Source: Protonemura montana (Eukaryota; Arthropoda; Insecta; Plecoptera; Nemouridae). Taken from it: a stretch of DNA of 64,000 nt. Below, piece by piece: positions 2,686 through 57,808 of this stretch (the stretch's first letter is position 1; each line of letters begins with the position of its first letter). The position numbers and the translations under genes were made by a program. The notes under the pieces were generated by a model. The model was not told where the DNA came from and made no database searches. It saw nothing but the letters and a program-made list of their open reading frames with translations. The stretch spans positions 6,176,001 to 6,240,000 of the forward strand of contig OX387608.1 in NCBI GenBank assembly GCA_947568835.1, in the 5' to 3' direction.

Positions 2686-3090
2686 TATGGTAACTGTTAT
2701 GGAATTGAGAAAGTTGTAAAAATAGTTAGGGAAGAAGTTTTTTTTTTCACTTTCCATTACTGTCAATGAAAATGTATGGCAATTTATTACTAACTTCAAA
2801 TTTAGCTCACTATTCAATTTTATTTTATCTGTTTTCCTTCTCGTGTAGAAATTAAGGTGCTAAATCGAAATAAGCCCAAGTTAAGGTTTTTTTTTTGGTT
2901 TTTTTTTTTGGTTTTTTTTTCGGTTTTAGAGAGTGGGGAATTTATTTTTTAATCAGAAACTTCGTCCCGCTCGTTTTTTTTTTTTTTTTGCTGTCAACGA
3001 CAGGCTGTGTTAGCGACATTTGAAACGTCAATCTCGGCGGAGGTGGAACTGAAAATCAATCAGTTTTGGAGGCGTTTGGCTCACGAGAGT

Positions 3091-3683
3091 ACGTTGGATG
3101 TTTTCCATCTGATTTGCTTGGGTACTGACGTTTTCCCATCTGATTTGCAAGGGTACTGACGTTTTCCCATCTGAATTGCAAGGGTACTGACGTTTTCCCA
3201 TATGAATTGCAGGGGTACTGACGTTTTCCCATCTGAATTGCAAGGGTACTGACGTTTTCCCATATGAATTGCAAGGGTACTGACGTTTTCCCATCTGAAT
3301 TGCAAGGGTACTGACGTTTTCCCATCTGATTTGCTTGGGTACTGACGTTTTCCCATCTGAATTGCAAGGGTTCTGATGTTTTCCCATCTGATTTGCAAGG
3401 GTACTGACTTTTTTCCGTCTGATTTGCAAGGGTACTGACGTTTTCCCATCTGATTTGCAAGGGTACTGACGTTTCCCATCTGATTTGCAAGGGTACTGAC
3501 GTTTCCCATCTGATTTTCAAGGGTACTGACGTTTTACCGTCTGATTTGCAAGGGTACTGACGTTTTCCCATCTGAATTGCAAGGGCACTGACGTTTTCCC
3601 ATCTGATTTGCAAGGGTACTGACGTTTTCCCATCTGATTTTCTTGGGTACTGACGTTTCCCATCTGATTTGCAAGGGTACTGG
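3091..3683. repeat. 31-bp minisatellite, 18 units plus partial ends
   Basis: The unit is GGGTACTGACGTTTTCCC followed by ATCTGATTTGCAA. Full units start at 3120, 3151, 3182 and so on to 3645, with 30-bp units where one T of the T-run is lost (3461, 3491, 3645). Degenerate partial units lie at both ends. Variants CTGATTTG, CTGAATTG and ATATGAATTG mark subtypes. Because 31 is not a multiple of three and the unit has no minus-strand stop, all three minus frames stay open for long distances. The resulting 214-, 142- and 133-codon frames are therefore repeat artefacts. Confidence 0.95.
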
Positions 3684-5255
3684 CGGATGTCTTGTGGCAT
3701 TTGCTTGTCAATAAAATTTTACTGTACTTCCTTACACCGCTGAATCAGATCAGTGTGAAATGAAGGAAAGGCGTGAACCGGAGATCGTAAAAAGGCGTTG
3801 CTTCGGAAGCGAGACATGACACTAATAAATGAAGCATAAAACATTATTATTTACGAGGTAATTTAACTTTTTTTTTCGTGTTTTATTTGCAAATATCTCT
3901 CTGAAAAATTTTCCTTTCGAATGCTATAAAGTCGGAAGAGATATTTCAATTAAATTTACCTGTAAAGGTGTGACATGGCACGACGCCATCGGCTTAATTT
4001 TGTTTTTGAATAATTCAGGAAAACATTAAAAAATACATGTTCTATTTTTAAAGTTGGTGGGACGGTACTTCGTGTTTTTTTTTTTTTTTTTTTTTTTCTT
4101 AACAGAAGTTAGTTTTTATTGAGCAGCCAGGACACAAGCGAAAAGGTGATCTGAGCTTGATAGATATTGAATGCCAACAGAAAAGTCAATTTTCTTTTCA
4201 ATATTCTTGGAAGACCAATTGAAAGTTACCTAAAATCTTTGAAAGTTCATAGAATGCACTTTTCTAGTCCACTAGTGTTAAACAATTATAGATATCTCCG
4301 TAGAGATTCTCAAAGATAAATCACAATTTAATTTTAAATATATAAACTTATTTTTTGTTCAATATTTAAGATAATTACTGTAAGCTTTGTCATTTTGTTT
4401 TTAAATAAATACATTATTACTATGTCAACTGTTATTAACACCTCCCAAACTGTATGAAAAAAGCACACAAATACAAAAAAGTTTCCTTCAAATTACCAAA
4501 AAAAACTGTAACCACTCCCATACAGAGTAACAACGTTACACCTAACCGGAGTATAAAAGTCTATTTATTTACTACGCAGTACACACCCGCTGTTAAAACA
4601 GGGTAAGAGGGGGACCCCATGCCGCCAAGTCTGTGTTGTGGGTCGAGGGCATTCACCCGCCCAGTAGCCAGATAGGCTGCAACCGTGGCTCCCCTAACCC
4701 TAACTCTAACCAGACACGACCAAAACAATGACTCACACCAAGGGTAGTCTAACACAAACTACCATAACGCTAATGTTAACTGTCTTAGCGACAAAATAGC
4801 CACCATTACAGCGACAAAAATGGCAGATGCCTCTAAAATAATAATAATAATAAATAATAATAATAATATAATAATAATAATATTTTTTTATTCCATAAGC
4901 AACATGAGAATGTCATACAGGAAAGTCATTTTGAATTTTCAAGAAATTCTTTTATGTTATAAAAACAGCTTTTCATAAGGTAGCGCTTCAAACCCTGTTT
5001 AAATGCTGAACCCTCGTTTTCGTTCAACTCTGGTGGAAGTAAATTATAAAATAGACTTCCAGCATAAGCAGGTCTTTTTTTAAATGTAGTTTTTTCGAGA
5101 TGGAGACACCGTCGTTTCGAGTGGTTAGTCATTTTATTTCTCGCAGATTACTCGCATTTGAGACTGGTTTACGCTCAGTTATTCTTTATTTACCTCAACG
5201 ATTGATGTACATGTGTTGATATTTTGAGTCGTAATTTTTCGATTGTAAATGTTTG
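3684..5255. other. AT-rich gene-free interval
   Basis: No exon-like island was found. It contains a 23-base T run (about 4075-4097), a mildly GC-richer patch at 4580-4740 with no recognisable coding content, and an AAT microsatellite listed separately. Confidence 0.6.
4837..4884. repeat. AAT microsatellite
   Basis: Interrupted (AAT)n/(ATA)n run. Comparable AAT tracts sit at 34330-34350 (the tail of a SINE) and 61812-61842. Confidence 0.9.
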
Positions 5256-5859: not shown

Positions 5860-7847
5860 GCGAGCAGATTAATTATTGACAGTGAAGGGTAAAGGTCGGG
5901 GTACCAAATATGACCAAAATAACGCACGCAAGTCGCTGGTGGGTTTTTTTATTTTTGCGTGGAGGGATGAAATATAAATTGGCGCTGTGGTGGGATGACA
6001 TGGAAAAGTGCTCAACGGATCATGGTTTTGCATTTCGGCTGGAAGGCTTTTAAGTGCTGTAGATACGTTTCGGATTTTAGCTTTAGGAGTGGAGTGCCCG
6101 AATGTTTTTTTTTTGTCGTTTCAGTGAATTTTGGAGAATTATGGTTTTCTAGACCGTAGAAAATCGACCGCACAATGGTTTCGATAAAATATGTTTATAC
6201 AAGGTTTTGGGTCATTGTTTTGGGTAACGCATTGCGAGTAATCGCGTTTTTTTTGTTTCTCAGCCCAACCCCTAATGTCTGTTGGAATCTTTAAAAAAAA
6301 AAACATCACACAAAAATTATCTATTCGATAAATAACTATTCGCGGTGACAGTAATGGCGTTGTTCCTCTCTGGAAATAAGTGCGCAAGGACCGTTTTTTG
6401 TTATCTAACGCCGGTTTCTTTCCGCGATCTTTACAGAAATAAATTAACAGAAACCATAAAACTGATAAAAGTTGAATGAAAATCACTGAGAGGCAAACGA
6501 TTTTTGTTGTTAACTCAAAATGACTTCTATGTCCGCTACTAGTGATGGTTTTACAATATAGAATTAACTACCTTGCTTGATAGCTACGAGTTCAATGGAC
6601 TCAATTGAAAACAACAACAATGTTCTAGTTAATGTCGATAAATCGGTATGCGATAAAGGACATAAAATCAACGTCGTAATTAAATTGTATTCCACTTGTT
6701 TTCGTTTTCAATTTATTCTTCTAATTAATAGCTTTCTCATTACGATGGAGAGAAGCTTTCTGCGACTTAATAATAAGAGGGGTAGAGGGGAATTTTGAAT
6801 GGAACCAAATTGAAAACATAATTAATGTCAATCACCTTTTGTTACGGAGTTAAGTGGCTTAGCGACTTCTACGGTGGTGAACACGATCATTAGTTGTTAG
6901 CGTCGTATTTTCAAAAATCATTTTTCATTTTCAAAAACAGAACAGACTATAAAGTGAACAGCATTGTTGAATGATTTCAATGGGTTCAGGGTTTAGGAAT
7001 TCCCCGTGCCTGAAACTGATAAACAGATATGAACTAATTAATTCATCTGAGCCTACTGCCTATCTCATTACTAATTTGTATAATTCAGTCAGATTGCCAT
7101 GCAGATTCACGAATCTGATTTCATGCAATAGATTTATTATCACCATTGCAATTACACGCAGCAAGTAATTGCTTATACCATATGTAATCCACATATTTCA
7201 AGTCGACAATTATTAACAACTAAGTATACCATTTCAATTATCATGCCGCATAATTGTATAATAAATTAACTCTAGTGCTGGTCGCGTCCCATAAAATCGT
7301 CCAGGCACATGTAAAGGGCAAAATCAGCAATAATTCTAATGGCATTAATCATAATTTATAATAACTTCAAATAAATGTCAAATGAGAAAAAATAAGGACA
7401 CAAACAAATATGATTTCATTCGAATCTTGTTACATTGACATGAATATCAAACTGATAATCATCCAATTATTTCGTACATTTATTTCTTTATGACAAGTCA
7501 TGGTGTTTACATTTCGATAATTACAATGTTACACGGAATGTCGCAATAGCTGATGTCGTAGTAGCCATTAGTAGGTGTCGTCTGGGAGAATTGGCGGCCC
7601 TGAACTCGCGCAGTGGCGCTAGGTCGATAGTGGCGTATCACTGTCGATAAGCACCAGAACGGTTAGTGACTGGCATTCAAATTCAGGAATACCATTTGAC
7701 AGTTTATTTTACACAGAACAGAATTATAAAAATACATGGAAAGGGAACTAGACTGGAAAAATGTGTGACCAAACCGGGATCTCTCTATAACTTGCTGGTT
7801 TCAGCTCTAGTGGAATTACCAGAATAACCAAAAAAACCTTCAAAATA
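5860..7847. other. AT-rich interval with no recognised feature
   Basis: Short open frames (for example 6139-6486 on the minus strand) have AT-driven composition and no splice or family motif. Nothing repeated elsewhere in the window was recognised. Confidence 0.5.
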
Positions 7848-7860
7848 CATATGTAAGCGT

Positions 7861-8170
7861 TAGGATAAAATCTTATTTAAATTGCAAACGCTTGCAATGC
7901 GCGAGGTATTTTATTATTATCAACACTTTAACCGTCTCAAAAATTGATCCCCAAACGGAGACTCGAACCCAGATCTCCACCAATCGCGGGTGTTGCTCTA
8001 AACCTCCTTGGAGAACTGCCATTCTCATCAAATACAGTAAAATCGTCTCAAAAAGCCAGTGTCCAAGTAGCTCAATGGTTTAAAGCAACTCCCGCGATAG
8101 TTAGAGATCGGGGTTCGAGTCCCAGTTTAAGCATCAATTTTTGAGACGGTTATAGTGTTGATAATAATGA
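7861..8170 (+). repeat. Inverted tRNA-like SINE/fold-back element, copy 1
   Basis: The element begins AGGATAAAATCTTATTTAAA and ends GTTGATAATAAT. Flanking 13-mers CATATGTAAGCGT (7848-7860) and CACATGTAAACGT (8171-8183) differ at two positions and look like an aged target-site duplication. Inside, 36-bp arms 7913-7948 and 8133-8168 are inverted repeats with one mismatch. Each arm adjoins a tRNA-like module pointing outward: minus strand about 7950-8030, and plus strand about 8058-8128 with box A-like TAGCTCAATGG and box B GGTTCGAGTCC. The long irregular duplication favours retrotransposition over a classical MITE. Transcription by RNA polymerase III is inference. Confidence 0.8.
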
Positions 8171-8210
8171 CACATGTAAACGTCTTTGGGTTATTCAAGT
8201 CAAGTGAGAG

Positions 8211-8224
8211 ACACTAGATGGCGC
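8211..8224 (+). promoter_or_regulatory. CTCF-like motif
   Basis: ACACTAGATGGCGC matches the widely conserved CTCF core CCASYAGRKGGCGC at 13 of 14 positions. It lies 28 bp beyond the tRNA-like element's duplication. Binding is untested. Confidence 0.4.
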
Positions 8225-8365
8225 TCGTTGCCGTCATTTTTAACAAAACCTCTGATATTTAATAATTACGACTCAAAATAGCGAAACACCTTTTATCAAT
8301 AGTTGAGATCGTCAATCGTATCAATCGTTCAACATTATTGAAGATTAATTACATTTAAACCTAAG

Positions 8366-8528
8366 AAAAACTATTTGAAATGGGTTTTGAATGCTAAGTA
8401 AAGGACAACTTAGAATTTTACTAATTGTACTAATTTTACTTAGCATTCAAACCCCATTTCAAATAGTTTTTGTTAAAACTATTGCTAAGGATAAATCAAG
8501 TAGACATGAGTCTAAAGACCATCATACA
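8366..8528 (+). repeat. ACCATCAT family, copy with inverted-repeat start
   Basis: Arms 8366-8402 and 8435-8471 are 37-bp inverted repeats with one mismatch. The unique 3' part follows (GCTAAGGATAAATCAAGTAG, then CATGAGTCTAAAGACCATCA). Other copies in the window keep only the right arm and the 3' part. Class is unknown: a 3' fragment of a larger element or a hairpin-ended non-autonomous element are both possible. Confidence 0.75.
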
Positions 8529-8872
8529 TGTAAACCAGTTTTAAATACAAGTAATCTGCAAGAAATAAAGAAATGAAATTTCTTAACTATCAAAATATCT
8601 AGTAGGATCCTCTATTTTCGTTGATATATTTTCGTTGATACTCATAATTATTTAGTTAAAAACGCCAATGTGTTCGAGTTCTTATTTCAGAAAATACACA
8701 ATACATTAGTTTTTAAGTTATTGACCCTGGTTATTTTGTTTGGATGCATTTAGGAAGCTTGAACTAGGTAATTGTTATAATTTTATGTGGTTCTTTTGTT
8801 ATCGGAAAATTGTCAGGACTGCTCTTACCCTTGAAGAAGTAACTAGTATATGTTAAAAACGTCGGGAAATTT

Positions 8873-8973
8873 AGTTGCCCTTTACCTAGCATTCAAAACC
8901 CAGTTCAAATAGTTTTTATAAAAACTTGTGCTAAGGATAAATCAAGTAGACATGAGTCTAAAAACCATCATAA
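8873..8973 (+). repeat. ACCATCAT family, short copy
   Basis: Begins GCCCTTTACCTAGCATTC and ends TCTAAAAACCATCATAA. It matches 8435-8528 and 57502-57601 throughout at high identity, and the left inverted arm is absent. Confidence 0.8.
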
Positions 8974-9105
8974 AGTTATCGGTCGGTTTATTGATCTATC
9001 ATATTTAATTCAAAGTTGACAATACCCTGTTGGCATACCTAACACAAAAGAAATTAAAATCAACCAACAATTCATCAAGTCACCTGTTTAAAGTAACTAA
9101 CTTAC

Positions 9106-9250
9106 CTATCCGTGCCCGACGCCACTGGTTGGCATGCGTACTGTCGTCAACACGTGTGTAATACTGTTTTGTGGCAGGCGCCAGTCTTATCGCGATTGAT
9201 GTAATTAGCCTATCACAACTTGCGATTTGATAAGAAGCGCGTGTATACAT
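9106..9250 (-). CDS. Candidate first coding exon, unidentified
   Basis: From ATG at 9248-9250 (minus) 48 codons stay open to a strong donor, ATAG|GTAAGTTAG, just below 9106, ending in phase 1. The segment is GC-richer than its flanks. The peptide is mixed and basic (it includes APATKQYYTRVDD) with no motif I recognise. If unspliced the frame stops eight codons later. An E-box CACGTG lies inside, so a non-coding or regulatory reading is also possible. Confidence 0.25.
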
Positions 9251-9430
9251 AAGATCTGATGCAGAAATGAAAGCAATGTAAACAATCTCTTATCTCTCGT
9301 CATGCTATAAGAAACCAACTTCGCAATAATGTCATGCTGTATTCCATTGATTGCACAATTGCACGTGTTTTCTTAATTGTTTGGTTTACGGTTTGATTTG
9401 TGTTTTTCTATGGCGGTTAGAATCAAAGTT

Positions 9431-9745
9431 AGGATGAAATCTTATTTAAATTGCAAACGCTGGCAATGCGGGGGGTATTTTAGTATTATCAACACTATAA
9501 CCATCTCAAAAATTGATGTCCCCGTTTGGGCATCAATTTTTGAGACGGTTTGAGACGGTCTCAAAAATTGATGCTAAAACGGGGACTCGAACCCCGATCT
9601 CCACCTTTCGCGGGTGTTGCTTTAAACCATGAGCTTCTTGGACACAGGATTTTTGAGACGATTTTAGTCAACACTATAACCATCTCAAAAATTGATGTCC
9701 CCTTTTGGGCATCAATTTTTGAGACGGTTATAGTGTTAATAATAA
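9431..9745 (+). repeat. Inverted tRNA-like SINE/fold-back element, copy 2
   Basis: Flanked by a perfect 13-bp duplication TAGAATCAAAGTT (9418-9430 and 9746-9758). Starts AGGATGAAATCTTATTTAAA like copy 1 and ends GTTAATAATAAT. A single tRNA-like module on the minus strand (about 9565-9645, box B GGTTCGAGTCC, box A region TTTAAAGCAACACCCGCG) lies between two perfect hairpins, 9504-9545 and 9683-9724. Each hairpin has stem TCTCAAAAATTGATG and a 12-nt loop. The hairpins look like collapsed remnants of further tRNA-like arms. Confidence 0.85.
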
Positions 9746-9759
9746 TAGAATCAAAGTTG

Positions 9760-11494
9760 AATTTCAGAGATTTTAGGACACGTGTCTACAAAATTGGAGG
9801 TACGCAATATTTTCAGATGGGGAAATTAATTAATTTGGCTAAGATAATTTACTCGTGCAACTAGGGGGAGGGGGGGGGATTCCTAAAATTACCCCAAATT
9901 TCATATCCGGACTCCGGTATCATAAACCTTTGCCGAAACAGGAAAACCAAAATAAATAATTCGTTGTTTTTGTGATCTTTCATGCGTATATTATTAAAAT
10001 CCCGCGTGTATATTTTTTGCTTTCTTCTTCATCGCTCCTGGATTTTTTGTTTTTGAATCCATTTGCAAATTAGTTTTTTTTTCACTGCTTTTATAGCGAA
10101 GTGGTAATAGCCTGAAGCCTCTTTTTGTTCCGTGAATTACACAAACAAGAAAATTCAAACAAACAACGCGACTGCCGGAAGCAAGGTTTTCGGCCAAGCG
10201 ACCCCCCCCCCCCCCCCAAGTTTCTATGTTGTATTGTGCCCCAAACTCTCAGTGACTGCGTGGTGGGATTGTAAAATGTGTTCGCACAACTTTTATTACC
10301 TTGAGTTGGCCAATGCTTTCTGTAATTATATGCAAAGTTTGTAACGAATTGTGTTTGTAAAACACGTGTGCGGTTTTGCACGGGCACGGCTTGCACGCAC
10401 CGAAACGCATCGATGGGGGGCGTCAAATTGGTGTCAGTGCAAGTCCAAGTTTCGGACATTTGGGCGATTTTTTTTTTGGCCATGGTTTTGTAGTCCCAGC
10501 TTTGGAAATGATTGCATGGATATTTTAATTTTTGAATAAATAAATCGATTATTTGACAATATTGATACATTTTTTGGGTATTCTGTGAATATGGTCGATT
10601 TTGTGATCGGTTATATTGTCATTATGTCGCTAAATGGTTTCGACAACTGGCCTTGTGGCACTGGGCTTAAGGGGTTAATGAATTTGATGGTGATTATGAG
10701 AAGTATAGGTTAAGAAGGGGAGCTTTAACTCCCCCCCAAACTTTAAATTTGTTCTTCTCAAAAACTCATTGAGCACCGATATTAAAATTTGTCGGCGCTG
10801 ATACCACCAATTGAGTGGGCCAAAAAGTTCAAAATTTACCTCAAAGTAAAAATAAAACGGAAATATGCCCATCATCAATCTTGATCGGGATTCAAAATTC
10901 GATTAAAAATATAACACAAACAGTGACATCACTGTAGAGACTCTGCAGTGACGTCACTCAAAGATTCCGGTGCAGACAGCGGCGCGTGTCACGCTCATCC
11001 CTCAACTAACGCATACATCACATTTCACGACGAGCACAGAGAGAGAGAAATGCCAAACACCAGTCCAATTATCATCAAGTCGCATGCCCGCCTATTTTGC
11101 ATAGTATGCACCTCATGAGTAAAACTACCAGTCGACTCAAAGCGTACACGTGTCCTTCTCGCAACGTGTGGAGCTCGCGTATAGTACATTTCATTTCATT
11201 ACACCGTTCTAGCGCGTGGCAATTTTTATGTGTCGCGTAGGTGCCGTAGCTTTATCACGTTTCTTAATTACGTCACGAGGTGGAAGAGCCCTCCCCCCCC
11301 CCCCCCTTTGCCCGCTCTGTTTTGCCTCTGGTGGTGCTAGCAACTGTGCTAGGGATGGAAGCGAATATTGCCAATGTCGTGAAAAGTGTAGGGGAAATCT
11401 TTATGAGCGCAGTGTAGAAAATCGTATAAAAAAACCGGTCATTTTGACGTGAATGCAATGCCAAAATGATACAATTATTTTGTTGTCAGGTTTT
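9760..11494. other. Gene-poor interval with poly(C) tracts
   Basis: Holds C16 at 10202-10217 and C14 at 11293-11306. A degenerate minus-strand fragment of the 5S SINE tail is possible at 10626-10672. A 159-codon minus frame (10091-10570) runs through the poly(C) as polyglycine and is not credible as a protein. A CpG-richer patch at 10940-11260 contains a CRE. Confidence 0.5.
10949..10956. promoter_or_regulatory. Consensus CRE palindrome
   Basis: TGACGTCA, within a CpG-richer patch that also holds an E-box-like ACACGTGT near 11147. No exon or start site is evident next to it. Confidence 0.3.
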
Positions 11495-26556: not shown

Positions 26557-26955
26557 AACTTTCCCTGTAGAGGCGCCACCGGTCGTTTTGGGATGACATG
26601 TGGGCCAACTGTCATTTTGAAAAAAACAGTACAAACAAATCATGATGGTTTGTAGACTCTGTCTACTTGATTTATCCTTAGCACTAGTACAAATCACTAG
26701 TACTTAGTACAAAGCATCTTCGCTGATGTCAGCCATTTTAGTTTTGCTTTACAGGTTTTATCGTGCCAAGACAAGTTAGTAGAGCTGTTTTACAAATTGT
26801 TCTCCAGATTGTAACTATTTAAAAAATTGTTTTGCAGTTATAATTTTAATTTAAAAATATAGCCACTGATATCATTGTTGAAATGATATTCTGAGTAGGT
26901 AGCGATGCTTTGTGCTGACCGCCTTCTCTCACAGGCCAGACTGTACGAGTTGGTT
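26557..26955 (+). repeat. 55-bp-tail family, copy 2 (interrupted, minimal tail)
   Basis: The 5' module (CTTTCCCTGTAGAGGCGCCA, then CCGGTCGTTTTGGGATGACA) is split after AACAGTACAAA by an ACCATCAT-family insert, then resumes with CATCTTCGCTGATGTCAGCC. The 3' end keeps only part of one tail unit (CTTCTCTCACAGGCCAGACT). Confidence 0.75.
26640..26690 (-). repeat. ACCATCAT-family fragment nested in the 55-bp-tail element
   Basis: On the minus strand it reads GTGCTAAGGATAAATCAAGT, then AGACAGAGTCTACAAACCAT. AGTACAAA occurs on both sides, which may be a target duplication. The nesting shows this insertion is younger than its host copy. Confidence 0.65.
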
Positions 26956-30850: not shown

Positions 30851-31160
30851 GGCGGAATAATGGATCACCGCAGGGGATAAGCTAAGGGGGGAGACGGGAA
30901 GAAGCCAAGGCGACTCGTAGGTGGACAAGTACTCGAAACCTTAATGATGCTAATTAAATTGTCCCACGGACAGACTGGGCTGTCACGTTTTCCTGAACCC
31001 CGTTTTTATCTATGGTATTTCCAGGATATATATTTTTTTGTATTTTTATTTTGTAATTTCATGGACAAGAATTACAATTATGATAATGTTTGCCCTCATG
31101 TCAGACAGATTTACCTAAATAATGATTTGAATTGTGAATAAATTGATAATAAATAATGTT

Positions 31161-31260
31161 ATGATGGTTTTTAAACTCATGTCTACTTGATTTAGCCTTA
31201 GCACTAGTTTTAACAAAAACTATTTAAAATAGGTTTTGAATAGGTTTTGAAGGTTGTCCA
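31161..31260 (-). repeat. ACCATCAT family, minus-strand copy
   Basis: Matches the 57502-57601 copy in reverse complement, with a small internal duplication of AGGTTTTGAAT at the far end. Confidence 0.75.
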
Positions 31261-34328: not shown

Positions 34329-34781
34329 TTATTATTATTATTATTATTATTTGTGGTGTTTAACGACGCACTGTTTTGACAACTGGCCCTGCGGCACTGG
34401 TCTAATGGCGTCGGTGAATGAGTGGATGATGATGAGGATGATGATGAACCTAACCTAGCCTAGAAGGGAGGAGGGGAAACCCGGTGCCGGCACGTAGCCT
34501 ACTCCTGTCGAAGAGCACCAAGGGGACCACCGGCTTCACGTCCCTTCCGAAGGACGGTACAACTCGAACAGCAGGATTCCTCCACAAATCCATGCTGTCG
34601 AGAGGTTGATAAGCAAGGCGAGTGAAGTTGTTGTACTAACTTTTATCCCTCCAACCTCTCTCCCGAACAGAACTGGTCATGTGTATGATGGTCACCCATT
34701 CAATACCTGACTCAGCGCAGTGTTGCTTAACTTCGGTGATCTAACGAGAACCGGTGTTTCCAACACGCCAAACCGTTCGGT
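34329..34781 (-). repeat. 5S rRNA-derived SINE, copy I (full length)
   Basis: The best reference copy. Flanked by CTCAAATCCAA at 34318-34328 and 34782-34792. On the minus strand: ACCGAACGGTTTGGCGTG, AACACCGGTTCTCGTTAGAT, GAAGTTAAGCAACACTGCGC, GAATGGGTGACC, body, GTCGTTAAACACCAC, then an (AAT)n tail. The 5S-homologous head spans about the first 105 bp and includes the internal promoter region, so RNA polymerase III transcription is expected from knowledge of 5S-SINEs. Confidence 0.97.
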
Positions 34782-57452: not shown

Positions 57453-57501
57453 GACAGACTCAAAGCAACTGATTTTTTGGAAAGCACAATGCTTTAATTT
57501 T

Positions 57502-57601
57502 AGTTGTCCTTTACTTAGCATTCAAAACCCATTTCAAATAGTTTTTCTTAAAACTAGTGCTGAGGATAAATCAAGTAGACATGAGTCTAAAAACCATCAT
57601 A
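57502..57601 (+). repeat. ACCATCAT family, short copy
   Basis: AGTTGTCCTTTACTTAGCAT through GAGTCTAAAAACCATCAT. Nearly identical in layout to 8873-8973. Confidence 0.85.
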
Positions 57602-57808
57602 ATAAATACAGATATTGTTTTTTAACTAATGGGTTAGCGAAACGTAACTTAAATCTCATGAATATATGGAACTACCGAGTCTATACCAAAAATAGTTAAA
57701 AAACTGATTTCTCACGCACCTTTTATTTCCGATAATCCCTATCAATCAAGAACTTTCCCCGTGATAAAGGGATGAGCATCAAAATGTATTCAGTGATTCT
57801 TTAGTTAC

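What the first reader, a model, noticed from the sequence alone, without database searches (positions are those of the whole stretch)
7861..9758. Retroposon built from inverted tRNA-like arms, two copies ~1.5 kb apart
Both copies start AGGATRAAATCTTATTTAAA and end in AATAAT, and both are flanked by 13-bp duplications (perfect in copy 2, two mismatches in copy 1). Copy 1 has two tRNA-like modules facing outward between 36-bp inverted arms. Copy 2 has one module between two perfect hairpins whose loops look like residual tRNA 3' sequence. Known tRNA-derived SINEs are usually head-to-tail, and MITEs have short fixed duplications, so this mix is unusual. That it is a new SINE subclass is inference.
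Basis: partly seen in the sequence, partly recalled or inferred. Interest (0 to 1): 0.72.

Follow-up and report, generated by a model that had tools for sequence, protein, structure and literature searches.

The report
tRNA-bearing hitchhiker of Penelope-type retrotransposons
Two mirror-image repeats in this animal-like genome belong to a family of short mobile elements that carry a tRNA-like sequence and appear to be inserted by the copying machinery of Penelope retrotransposons, so their many copies could be used to study how that poorly understood machinery works.

Summary
The two repeats are real and belong to a large family: a 23-base stretch of the head occurs 544 times in the 258-Mb genome and 0 times in the reversed control. 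Copies are built from a 331-nt unit: 50-nt extension, 169-nt X, 73-nt tRNA-like part, 39-nt tail. Of 97 scored copies, 61 have two outer ends that are both 3' regions of the unit, one at about position 331 and the other 50 nt further. Flank duplications, mostly 12-15 bp, exceed the 99% null in 44 of 61. The centre junction is nearly always different (47 values in 53 two-arm copies), so the mirror image is made at insertion, not inherited as a design.

This matches published Penelope-like elements (PLEs). The genome holds PLE reverse transcriptases (80 matches); one PLE copy shows an inverted end, a 12-bp duplication and a one-sided extension of about 50 nt; PLE end fragments in the same loci, one lying between the two copies, show the same 50-nt offset. 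Best reading: a non-autonomous tRNA-bearing retroposon inserted by PLE machinery, probably by priming from both cut strands. Mobilisation by PLE is inferred from architecture only; no sequence is shared. New variant of a known kind.

The parts
7847..7859 (.). left flank duplication of copy 1 (13 bp, 2 mismatches to the right one)
   Evidence: read; scored
7860..8004 (-). copy 1, inverted arm, unit positions 380 down to 236: extension h, tail t and a truncated tRNA-like part
   Evidence: L001 1500-1644
8004..8168 (+). copy 1, forward arm, unit positions 163-327: part of X, whole tRNA-like part, tail
   Evidence: L001 1644-1808
8061..8133 (+). tRNA-like module of copy 1 (21.1 bits, below Rfam's gathering score of 29)
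   Evidence: L001 1701-1773
8170..8182 (.). right flank duplication of copy 1
   Evidence: read; scored
8351..8536 (+). PLE-derived inverted mini-insert between the two copies, with its 11-bp duplication (8351-8361 / 8526-8536, one mismatch, read by eye)
   Evidence: -[246-292] at 8364-8410, +[254-345] at 8435-8526
8638..8973 (+). solo PLE pseudo-LTR with extension, 93% to that of L088
9418..9430 (.). left flank duplication of copy 2 (13 bp, perfect)
   Evidence: read
9429..9521 (-). copy 2, segment 1: extension h and inverted tail (380 down to 288)
   Evidence: L009
9518..9550 (+). copy 2, segment 2: forward tail closing the first hairpin (278-310)
9555..9668 (-). copy 2, segment 3: inverted tail, whole tRNA-like part (about 9572-9644, 28.0 bits) and part of X (309 down to 195)
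9669..9700 (-). copy 2, segment 4: inverted tail of the second hairpin (319 down to 288)
9697..9751 (+). copy 2, segment 5: forward tail to the AATAAT end (278-332); its last bases overlap the duplication
9746..9758 (.). right flank duplication of copy 2
   Evidence: read

Best explanation
The two repeats are copies of a non-autonomous, tRNA-bearing retroposon inserted by the machinery of the Penelope-like elements (PLEs) living in the same genome. SHOWN in the copies scored: the family is built from a 331-nt unit that can occur in tandem; a typical copy has two arms lying head to head, and both outer ends are 3' regions of the unit, one at about 331 and the other 50 nt further (381); duplications are mostly 12-15 bp; the centre junction differs from copy to copy; the two arms sometimes carry different subfamily states; PLE-derived inserts in the same loci have the same plan and the same 50-nt offset. 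INFERRED: the PLE enzyme nicks both strands about 13 bp apart; each free 3' end primes reverse transcription on the 3' region of an RNA, one at the end of the extension and one at the internal site AATAATAAAA; the two cDNAs run towards each other for variable distances and are joined with microhomology or filler, which gives the head-to-head insert. LEAST CERTAIN: what the tRNA-like part does. A Pol III transcript should stop at the TTTTT just behind it, so it is not an obvious promoter for the full template.
For:: of 103 de-duplicated copies 6 at locus edges were dropped; of the other 97, 61 have one extended and one non-extended outer end, 2 both extended, 15 extended/other, 11 non-extended/other, 8 other/other. 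Duplication score above the 99th percentile (8.5) of 3660 mismatched flank pairs in 44 of 61; matched lengths 9-24, 27 of 44 at 12-15. The 53 two-segment copies have 47 distinct centre pairs; 288/278 (5), 285/278 (2) and 278/288 (2) recur, all around the same short palindrome; 80 PLE reverse-transcriptase matches, best E 1.3e-41. L086 has an 856-codon frame, direct pseudo-LTRs (649-1001 and 3589-3940), an inverted copy of the right end (167-637), duplication ATGAACCTATTT, and about 49-50 nt of extension on the right end only. PLE right ends stop either at TAGTTTTTCTAA(AA) (L089, L091) or about 50 nt further (L086, L088, L090); 10 of 21 scored PLE pieces have one end at about 346 and one at about 296; 7 of these 10 have duplication scores of 9 or more (threshold borrowed from the tRNA element; no separate null was run); arms of one copy differ at 21 of 101 diagnostic comparisons against 127 of 2134 at conserved sites; 5 of 24 copies with two or more testable sites differ at two or more, among them L033 with a 16-of-16 flank match. 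PMC3846280 (passages; Discussion) describes inverted pLTRs, a one-sided 31-bp 'tail' and duplications of 8-10 bp for rotifer PLEs.
Against: No significant sequence similarity between the unit and the six PLE stretches read (L086-L091; best E 1.3), so the link is by architecture. Movement was not observed. 17 of 61 two-ended copies have no duplication above threshold, and 36 of 97 copies do not have the two-ended form. Arms agree more often than independent templates would predict (40 of 52 at site 320, 25.2 expected), so many copies may use one template or one source; mixed arms could also come from one RNA with two unlike tandem units. Arm-to-arm divergence (mean 0.084) is hardly below that between copies (0.092). 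Pfam finds RVT_1 (E 2.8e-13) but no GIY-YIG domain in the L086 protein up to E 10; PF01541 finds one place in the genome, an SLX1-like gene by my reading. The sample is biased towards copies with the extension.
Confidence: 0.68

Rival explanations
1. PLE-type insertion, but the inverted arm arises by self-priming: the cDNA snaps back and copies itself, as PMC3846280 proposes for rotifer PLEs.
For: The recurring palindromic centres around 288/278 look like snap-back products. Arms agree at diagnostic sites more often than expected from independent templates (40 of 52 at site 320).
Against: A snap-back copy should not carry 50 nt that its template arm lacks, yet 61 of 97 copies have one outer end longer by that piece. 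Arms of L033, L034 and L050 carry different diagnostic states. Most two-arm copies have other centres than the short palindrome.
Confidence: 0.2
2. A tRNA-derived SINE of a new inverted-dimer subclass: one master copy with two facing-out tRNA modules was amplified by a LINE.
For: tRNA-like module with box A and box B by eye, AAT-rich 3' end, variable duplications. The 288/278 hairpin form recurs in 5 of 53 two-arm copies and may be an inherited subfamily.
Against: 47 centre junctions in 53 copies and mixed arms in some; TTTTT directly behind the tRNA-like part; tandem units and the one-sided 50-nt extension are shared with PLE inserts. LINE ends were not searched, so a LINE partner is not excluded.
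Confidence: 0.1
3. A MITE or fold-back DNA transposon carrying captured tRNA sequence.
For: Long inverted repeats and strong folding.
Against: The ends are asymmetric by 50 nt in 61 of 97 copies, arm lengths and centres vary, and matched duplication lengths vary. A transposase partner was not searched for.
Confidence: 0.02

Closest known systems
Penelope-like elements, in particular the Adineta vaga Penelope families (PMC3846280, passages and Discussion read)
   Same: Head-to-head inverted end repeat, direct tandem end repeats, a short extension ('tail', 31 bp there) on one end only, short duplications (8-10 bp in the passages seen).
   Different: No open reading frame of its own, no significant sequence similarity to the six PLE stretches read here, a tRNA-like module in the unit, an extension of 50 nt and duplications mostly of 12-15 bp.
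Metazoan retrozymes, small non-autonomous elements with type I hammerhead ribozymes (PMC7229834, passages read)
   Same: Non-autonomous, unit in the 170-400-nt range, occur in tandem, duplications longer than 4 bp; PLEs present in the same genomes.
   Different: No hammerhead was found in the unit; a tRNA-like module lies instead upstream of the tail. The word 'inverted' does not occur in that paper's main text.
tRNA-derived SINEs (features recalled)
   Same: tRNA-like part with internal Pol III boxes, short, non-coding, variable duplications.
   Different: Head-to-head arms with a new centre in most two-arm copies, tandem unit, TTTTT behind the tRNA-like part, one-sided extension.

Membership tests
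Penelope-like element | open reading frame with PLE reverse transcriptase (and GIY-YIG endonuclease in Penelope proper) | tested here: not met
   The unit is only 331 nt, while the frame in L086 has 856 codons. In the window no ORF of 100 aa or more overlaps the copies except a 104-aa TTG-start frame at 9550-9864, taken as chance. Hence called PLE-like and non-autonomous, not a PLE.
Penelope-like element | inverted end repeat, tandem unit, one-sided short extension | tested here: met
   61 of 97 copies, tandem examples L006, L043, L068; same plan in L086 and PLE fragments
Penelope-like element | end sequences shared with an autonomous PLE | tested here: not met
   no significant match to L086-L091; the other PLE copies were not read. 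Only a short likeness by eye: CATCCTAA / CATCATAA at the extended end, TAAAA at the other
Penelope-like element | mobilised by PLE protein | not testable with these tools
   needs an experiment
tRNA-derived SINE | tRNA-like part with internal Pol III promoter | tested here: met
   Rfam tRNA 36.1-48.7 bits for the best copies in L002, L026, L030, L032, L036 and L042; window copies only 21.1 and 28.0; box A and B by eye; transcription not tested
tRNA-derived SINE | body free of a Pol III terminator | tested here: not met
   TTTTT at unit positions 297-301 in the majority sequence
tRNA-derived SINE | one heritable structure shared by the copies | tested here: not met
   47 centre junctions in 53 two-arm copies
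Metazoan retrozyme | hammerhead ribozyme | tested here: inconclusive
   No Rfam hammerhead in six loci up to E 5 or in L042 up to E 10 and no core motif in the doubled unit; but Rfam also did not call the hammerhead-like motif in L086, so the Rfam negative is weak
MITE | symmetric terminal inverted repeats and fixed-length duplication | tested here: not met
   50-nt asymmetry in 61 of 97 copies, variable matched lengths

The most novel reading that the evidence does not exclude
A tRNA-like domain has taken the place of the hammerhead ribozyme in a PLE-dependent element: host tRNA-processing enzymes (RNase P, RNase Z) would cut tandem transcripts into unit-length RNAs, and PLE protein would insert two such RNAs from the two sides of one staggered break. 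This would be a SINE-like class that depends on PLEs rather than LINEs, with RNA processing by tRNA mimicry.
Probability: 0.2. Interest if true: 0.82.

Novelty: new variant of a known kind. Interest (0 to 1): 0.62.

Why it matters
How PLEs insert, and why they leave inverted ends with a one-sided extension, is open: PMC3846280 (Discussion) could not settle the template strand and proposed self-priming. This family offers many short insertions in one genome of large contigs, each recording both ends, the centre junction and the template state of each arm (97 scored here; 544 exact matches to the head 23-mer). The question becomes countable, and the first count here favours priming from both strands over snap-back. 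No paper on a tRNA-bearing PLE passenger was listed in the eight literature searches made; they cover only the held open-access papers, and I saw listings for most of them.

Tried and rejected
Relation by deletion to the PLEs read: no significant match. GIY-YIG genes with PF01541: one place, SLX1-like by my reading. Autonomous element behind two odd head copies: L061 holds only a piece of about 53 bp in what I read as an intron of a DNAJC7-like gene, L059 only part of the head. L087, fetched as a second PLE family, did not match L086 at DNA level; its pseudo-LTR was not delimited in the 1.3 kb taken. Better conservation of the tRNA-like part: not found (majority fraction 0.935 against 0.958 for X, 0.948 for the tail, 0.971-0.975 for the extension; subfamily sites included). 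Rfam miRNA matches to the hairpins were set aside as palindrome matches below their gathering scores. A LINE partner, a transposase and Pol III transcripts were not searched for. The species was not identified.

Sampling: 84 loci were mapped. L001-L048 are among the best matches to four DNA queries; L050-L085 are 36 of 96 chosen places out of 100 listed and 544 counted for the head 23-mer, so copies with the extension are favoured. Overlapping loci gave 103 copies, 6 at locus edges were dropped. One search was an earlier, looser count (47 of 71 pairs above its 99% null) that included false pairings. Searches used the 53 two-segment copies; 24 had two or more testable sites.

Odds: a draft gave the best explanation 0.76; I lowered it to 0.68 because the odds of best and rivals together exceeded 1.

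Full report
WHERE IT IS. A DNAJC7-like gene with introns in L061 (my reading) and PLEs suggest an animal; the species was not identified.

THE OBSERVATION. Copy 1 is an inverted arm (7860-8004) and a forward arm (8004-8168) with 92 nt of inverted repeat; its left tRNA-like module is truncated. Copy 2 is five segments with two hairpins. Neither window copy reaches Rfam's tRNA gathering score (21.1 and 28.0 against 29 bits) and ARAGORN calls no tRNA in the window.

THE FAMILY. Searches with copy 1, copy 2, the tRNA-plus-tail part and a neighbouring stretch from L036 gave 2800, 2643, 1198 and 2183 first-look candidates, 40 scored each. The 23-mer TTTAAATAAGATTTCATCCTAAT occurs 263 + 281 times, its reversed control 0 times. 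One genomic copy (L042) served as reference: a 331-nt unit of extension h (1-50), X (51-219), tRNA-like R (220-292) and tail t (293-331), followed again by h (332-381). More than one unit in tandem is seen for example in L006, L043 and L068.

THE MIRROR IMAGE IS MADE AT INSERTION. After removal of overlapping loci there were 103 copies; 6 at locus edges were dropped. Of 97, 61 have one outer end at the end of h (374-381) and the other at 322-342; 2 have both extended, 15 extended plus other, 11 non-extended plus other, 8 other. In 44 of the 61 the flanks repeat above the 99th percentile (8.5) of 3660 mismatched flank pairs; matched length 9-24, with 7, 9, 6 and 5 copies at 12, 13, 14 and 15. 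The 53 two-segment copies have 47 centre junctions; the recurring ones (288/278 five times, 285/278 twice, 278/288 twice) surround one short palindrome. At the junction the segments overlap by up to 8 nt or are separated by up to 63 nt (all). An earlier, looser count gave 47 of 71.

TWO TEMPLATES IN SOME COPIES. At five subfamily-diagnostic positions the two arms of a copy differ in 21 of 101 comparisons, against 127 of 2134 (6.0%) at conserved positions; 5 of 24 copies with two or more testable positions differ at two or more (L024, L033, L034, L039, L050), L033 with a perfect 16-base flank match. Against this, arms agree more than independent draws would (40 of 52 at site 320, 25.2 expected), and divergence between arms (mean 0.084, 46 copies) is close to that between copies (0.092). 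Mixed arms could also come from a single RNA with two unlike tandem units.

THE PLE LINK. L086 shows an 856-codon frame, RVT_1 by Pfam (E 2.8e-13), a GVYEV...KVYIGETGR stretch that I read as a PLE-type GIY-YIG endonuclease (recalled; not found by Pfam), direct pseudo-LTRs, an inverted copy of its right end, duplication ATGAACCTATTT and an extension on the right end only. A hammerhead-like motif CTGAAGA...GAAA lies in its pseudo-LTRs and in L088, L089 and L091, not in L090 (recognised from memory, not called by Rfam). When the PLE pseudo-LTR was mapped on the 84 loci fetched for the tRNA element, 22 pieces were found and 1 was dropped at an edge; 10 of 21 have one end at about 346 and one at about 296, the same 50-nt offset; 5 are extended/other, 3 non-extended/other, 3 other. 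Of the 10, 7 have duplication scores of 9 or more, with the threshold borrowed from the tRNA element. One of the other three (L001) merges two window inserts and its flanks are not meaningful. The window carries one such PLE mini-insert at 8351-8536 and a solo PLE end at 8638-8973, both between the two copies. There is no significant similarity between the unit and the six PLE stretches read.

MECHANISM. In the 61 two-ended copies both outer ends are 3' regions of the unit, so both target strands appear to have primed synthesis, at two sites 50 nt apart. Self-priming, proposed for rotifer PLEs in PMC3846280 (Discussion), does not readily explain an arm 50 nt longer than its supposed template, nor arms with different diagnostic states; it may still explain the palindromic form. 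The priming steps, the role of the PLE protein and the end joining are inferred.

THE tRNA-LIKE PART. In the majority sequence its acceptor ends pair; the best copies in six loci score 36.1-48.7 bits as tRNA. It is not more conserved than its surroundings and is followed by TTTTT. No hammerhead was found in the unit (the Rfam part of this negative is weak). That the tRNA-like part replaces the hammerhead as an RNA-processing site is the bold reading.

LITERATURE. PMC3846280 was read in passages and Discussion; PMC8969392, PMC7229834 and PMC11722881 in passages. Eight searches listed no paper whose title or abstract start told of a tRNA-bearing PLE passenger; two PLE papers that I wanted are not held, so priority cannot be judged fully.

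VERDICT. A real, many-copy family; a non-autonomous tRNA-bearing retroposon with PLE-type insertion structure; new variant of a known kind; interest 0.62.

Noticed in passing
L050, L053, L071, L072, L073, L074, L076, L080; also C11:1914150-1914464: Some copies contain head-to-tail arrays of a 52-bp unit (reference 216-273, the 5' part of the tRNA-like module), a dozen or more repeats in some: a satellite growing inside a mobile element.
   Followed up: partly
window 26642-26688, 31159-31241, 57496-57602: Further fragments of the PLE pseudo-LTR in the window.
   Followed up: no
window 34661-34781 (-); L026 252-370: 5S rRNA-like sequences (64.8 and 49.7 bits); they could be 5S genes or a 5S-derived repeat.
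   Followed up: no
C5:9491, C12:132793, C13:142988, C2:150072, C14:13008460, C15:12836716, C1:33018086: Several PLE reverse-transcriptase matches lie within about 150 kb of contig ends, judged from the contig lengths shown (for contigs entered near position 1 by the position alone).
   Followed up: no
window 3028-3700 (-): Minisatellite whose overlapping open frames repeat QMGKRQYPCKSDGKTSVPLQIRWENVST-like units.
   Followed up: no
L061 1771-1823: A solo piece of only about 53 bp (reference 329-381) in what I read as an intron of a DNAJC7-like gene, possibly a severely truncated insertion.
   Followed up: partly
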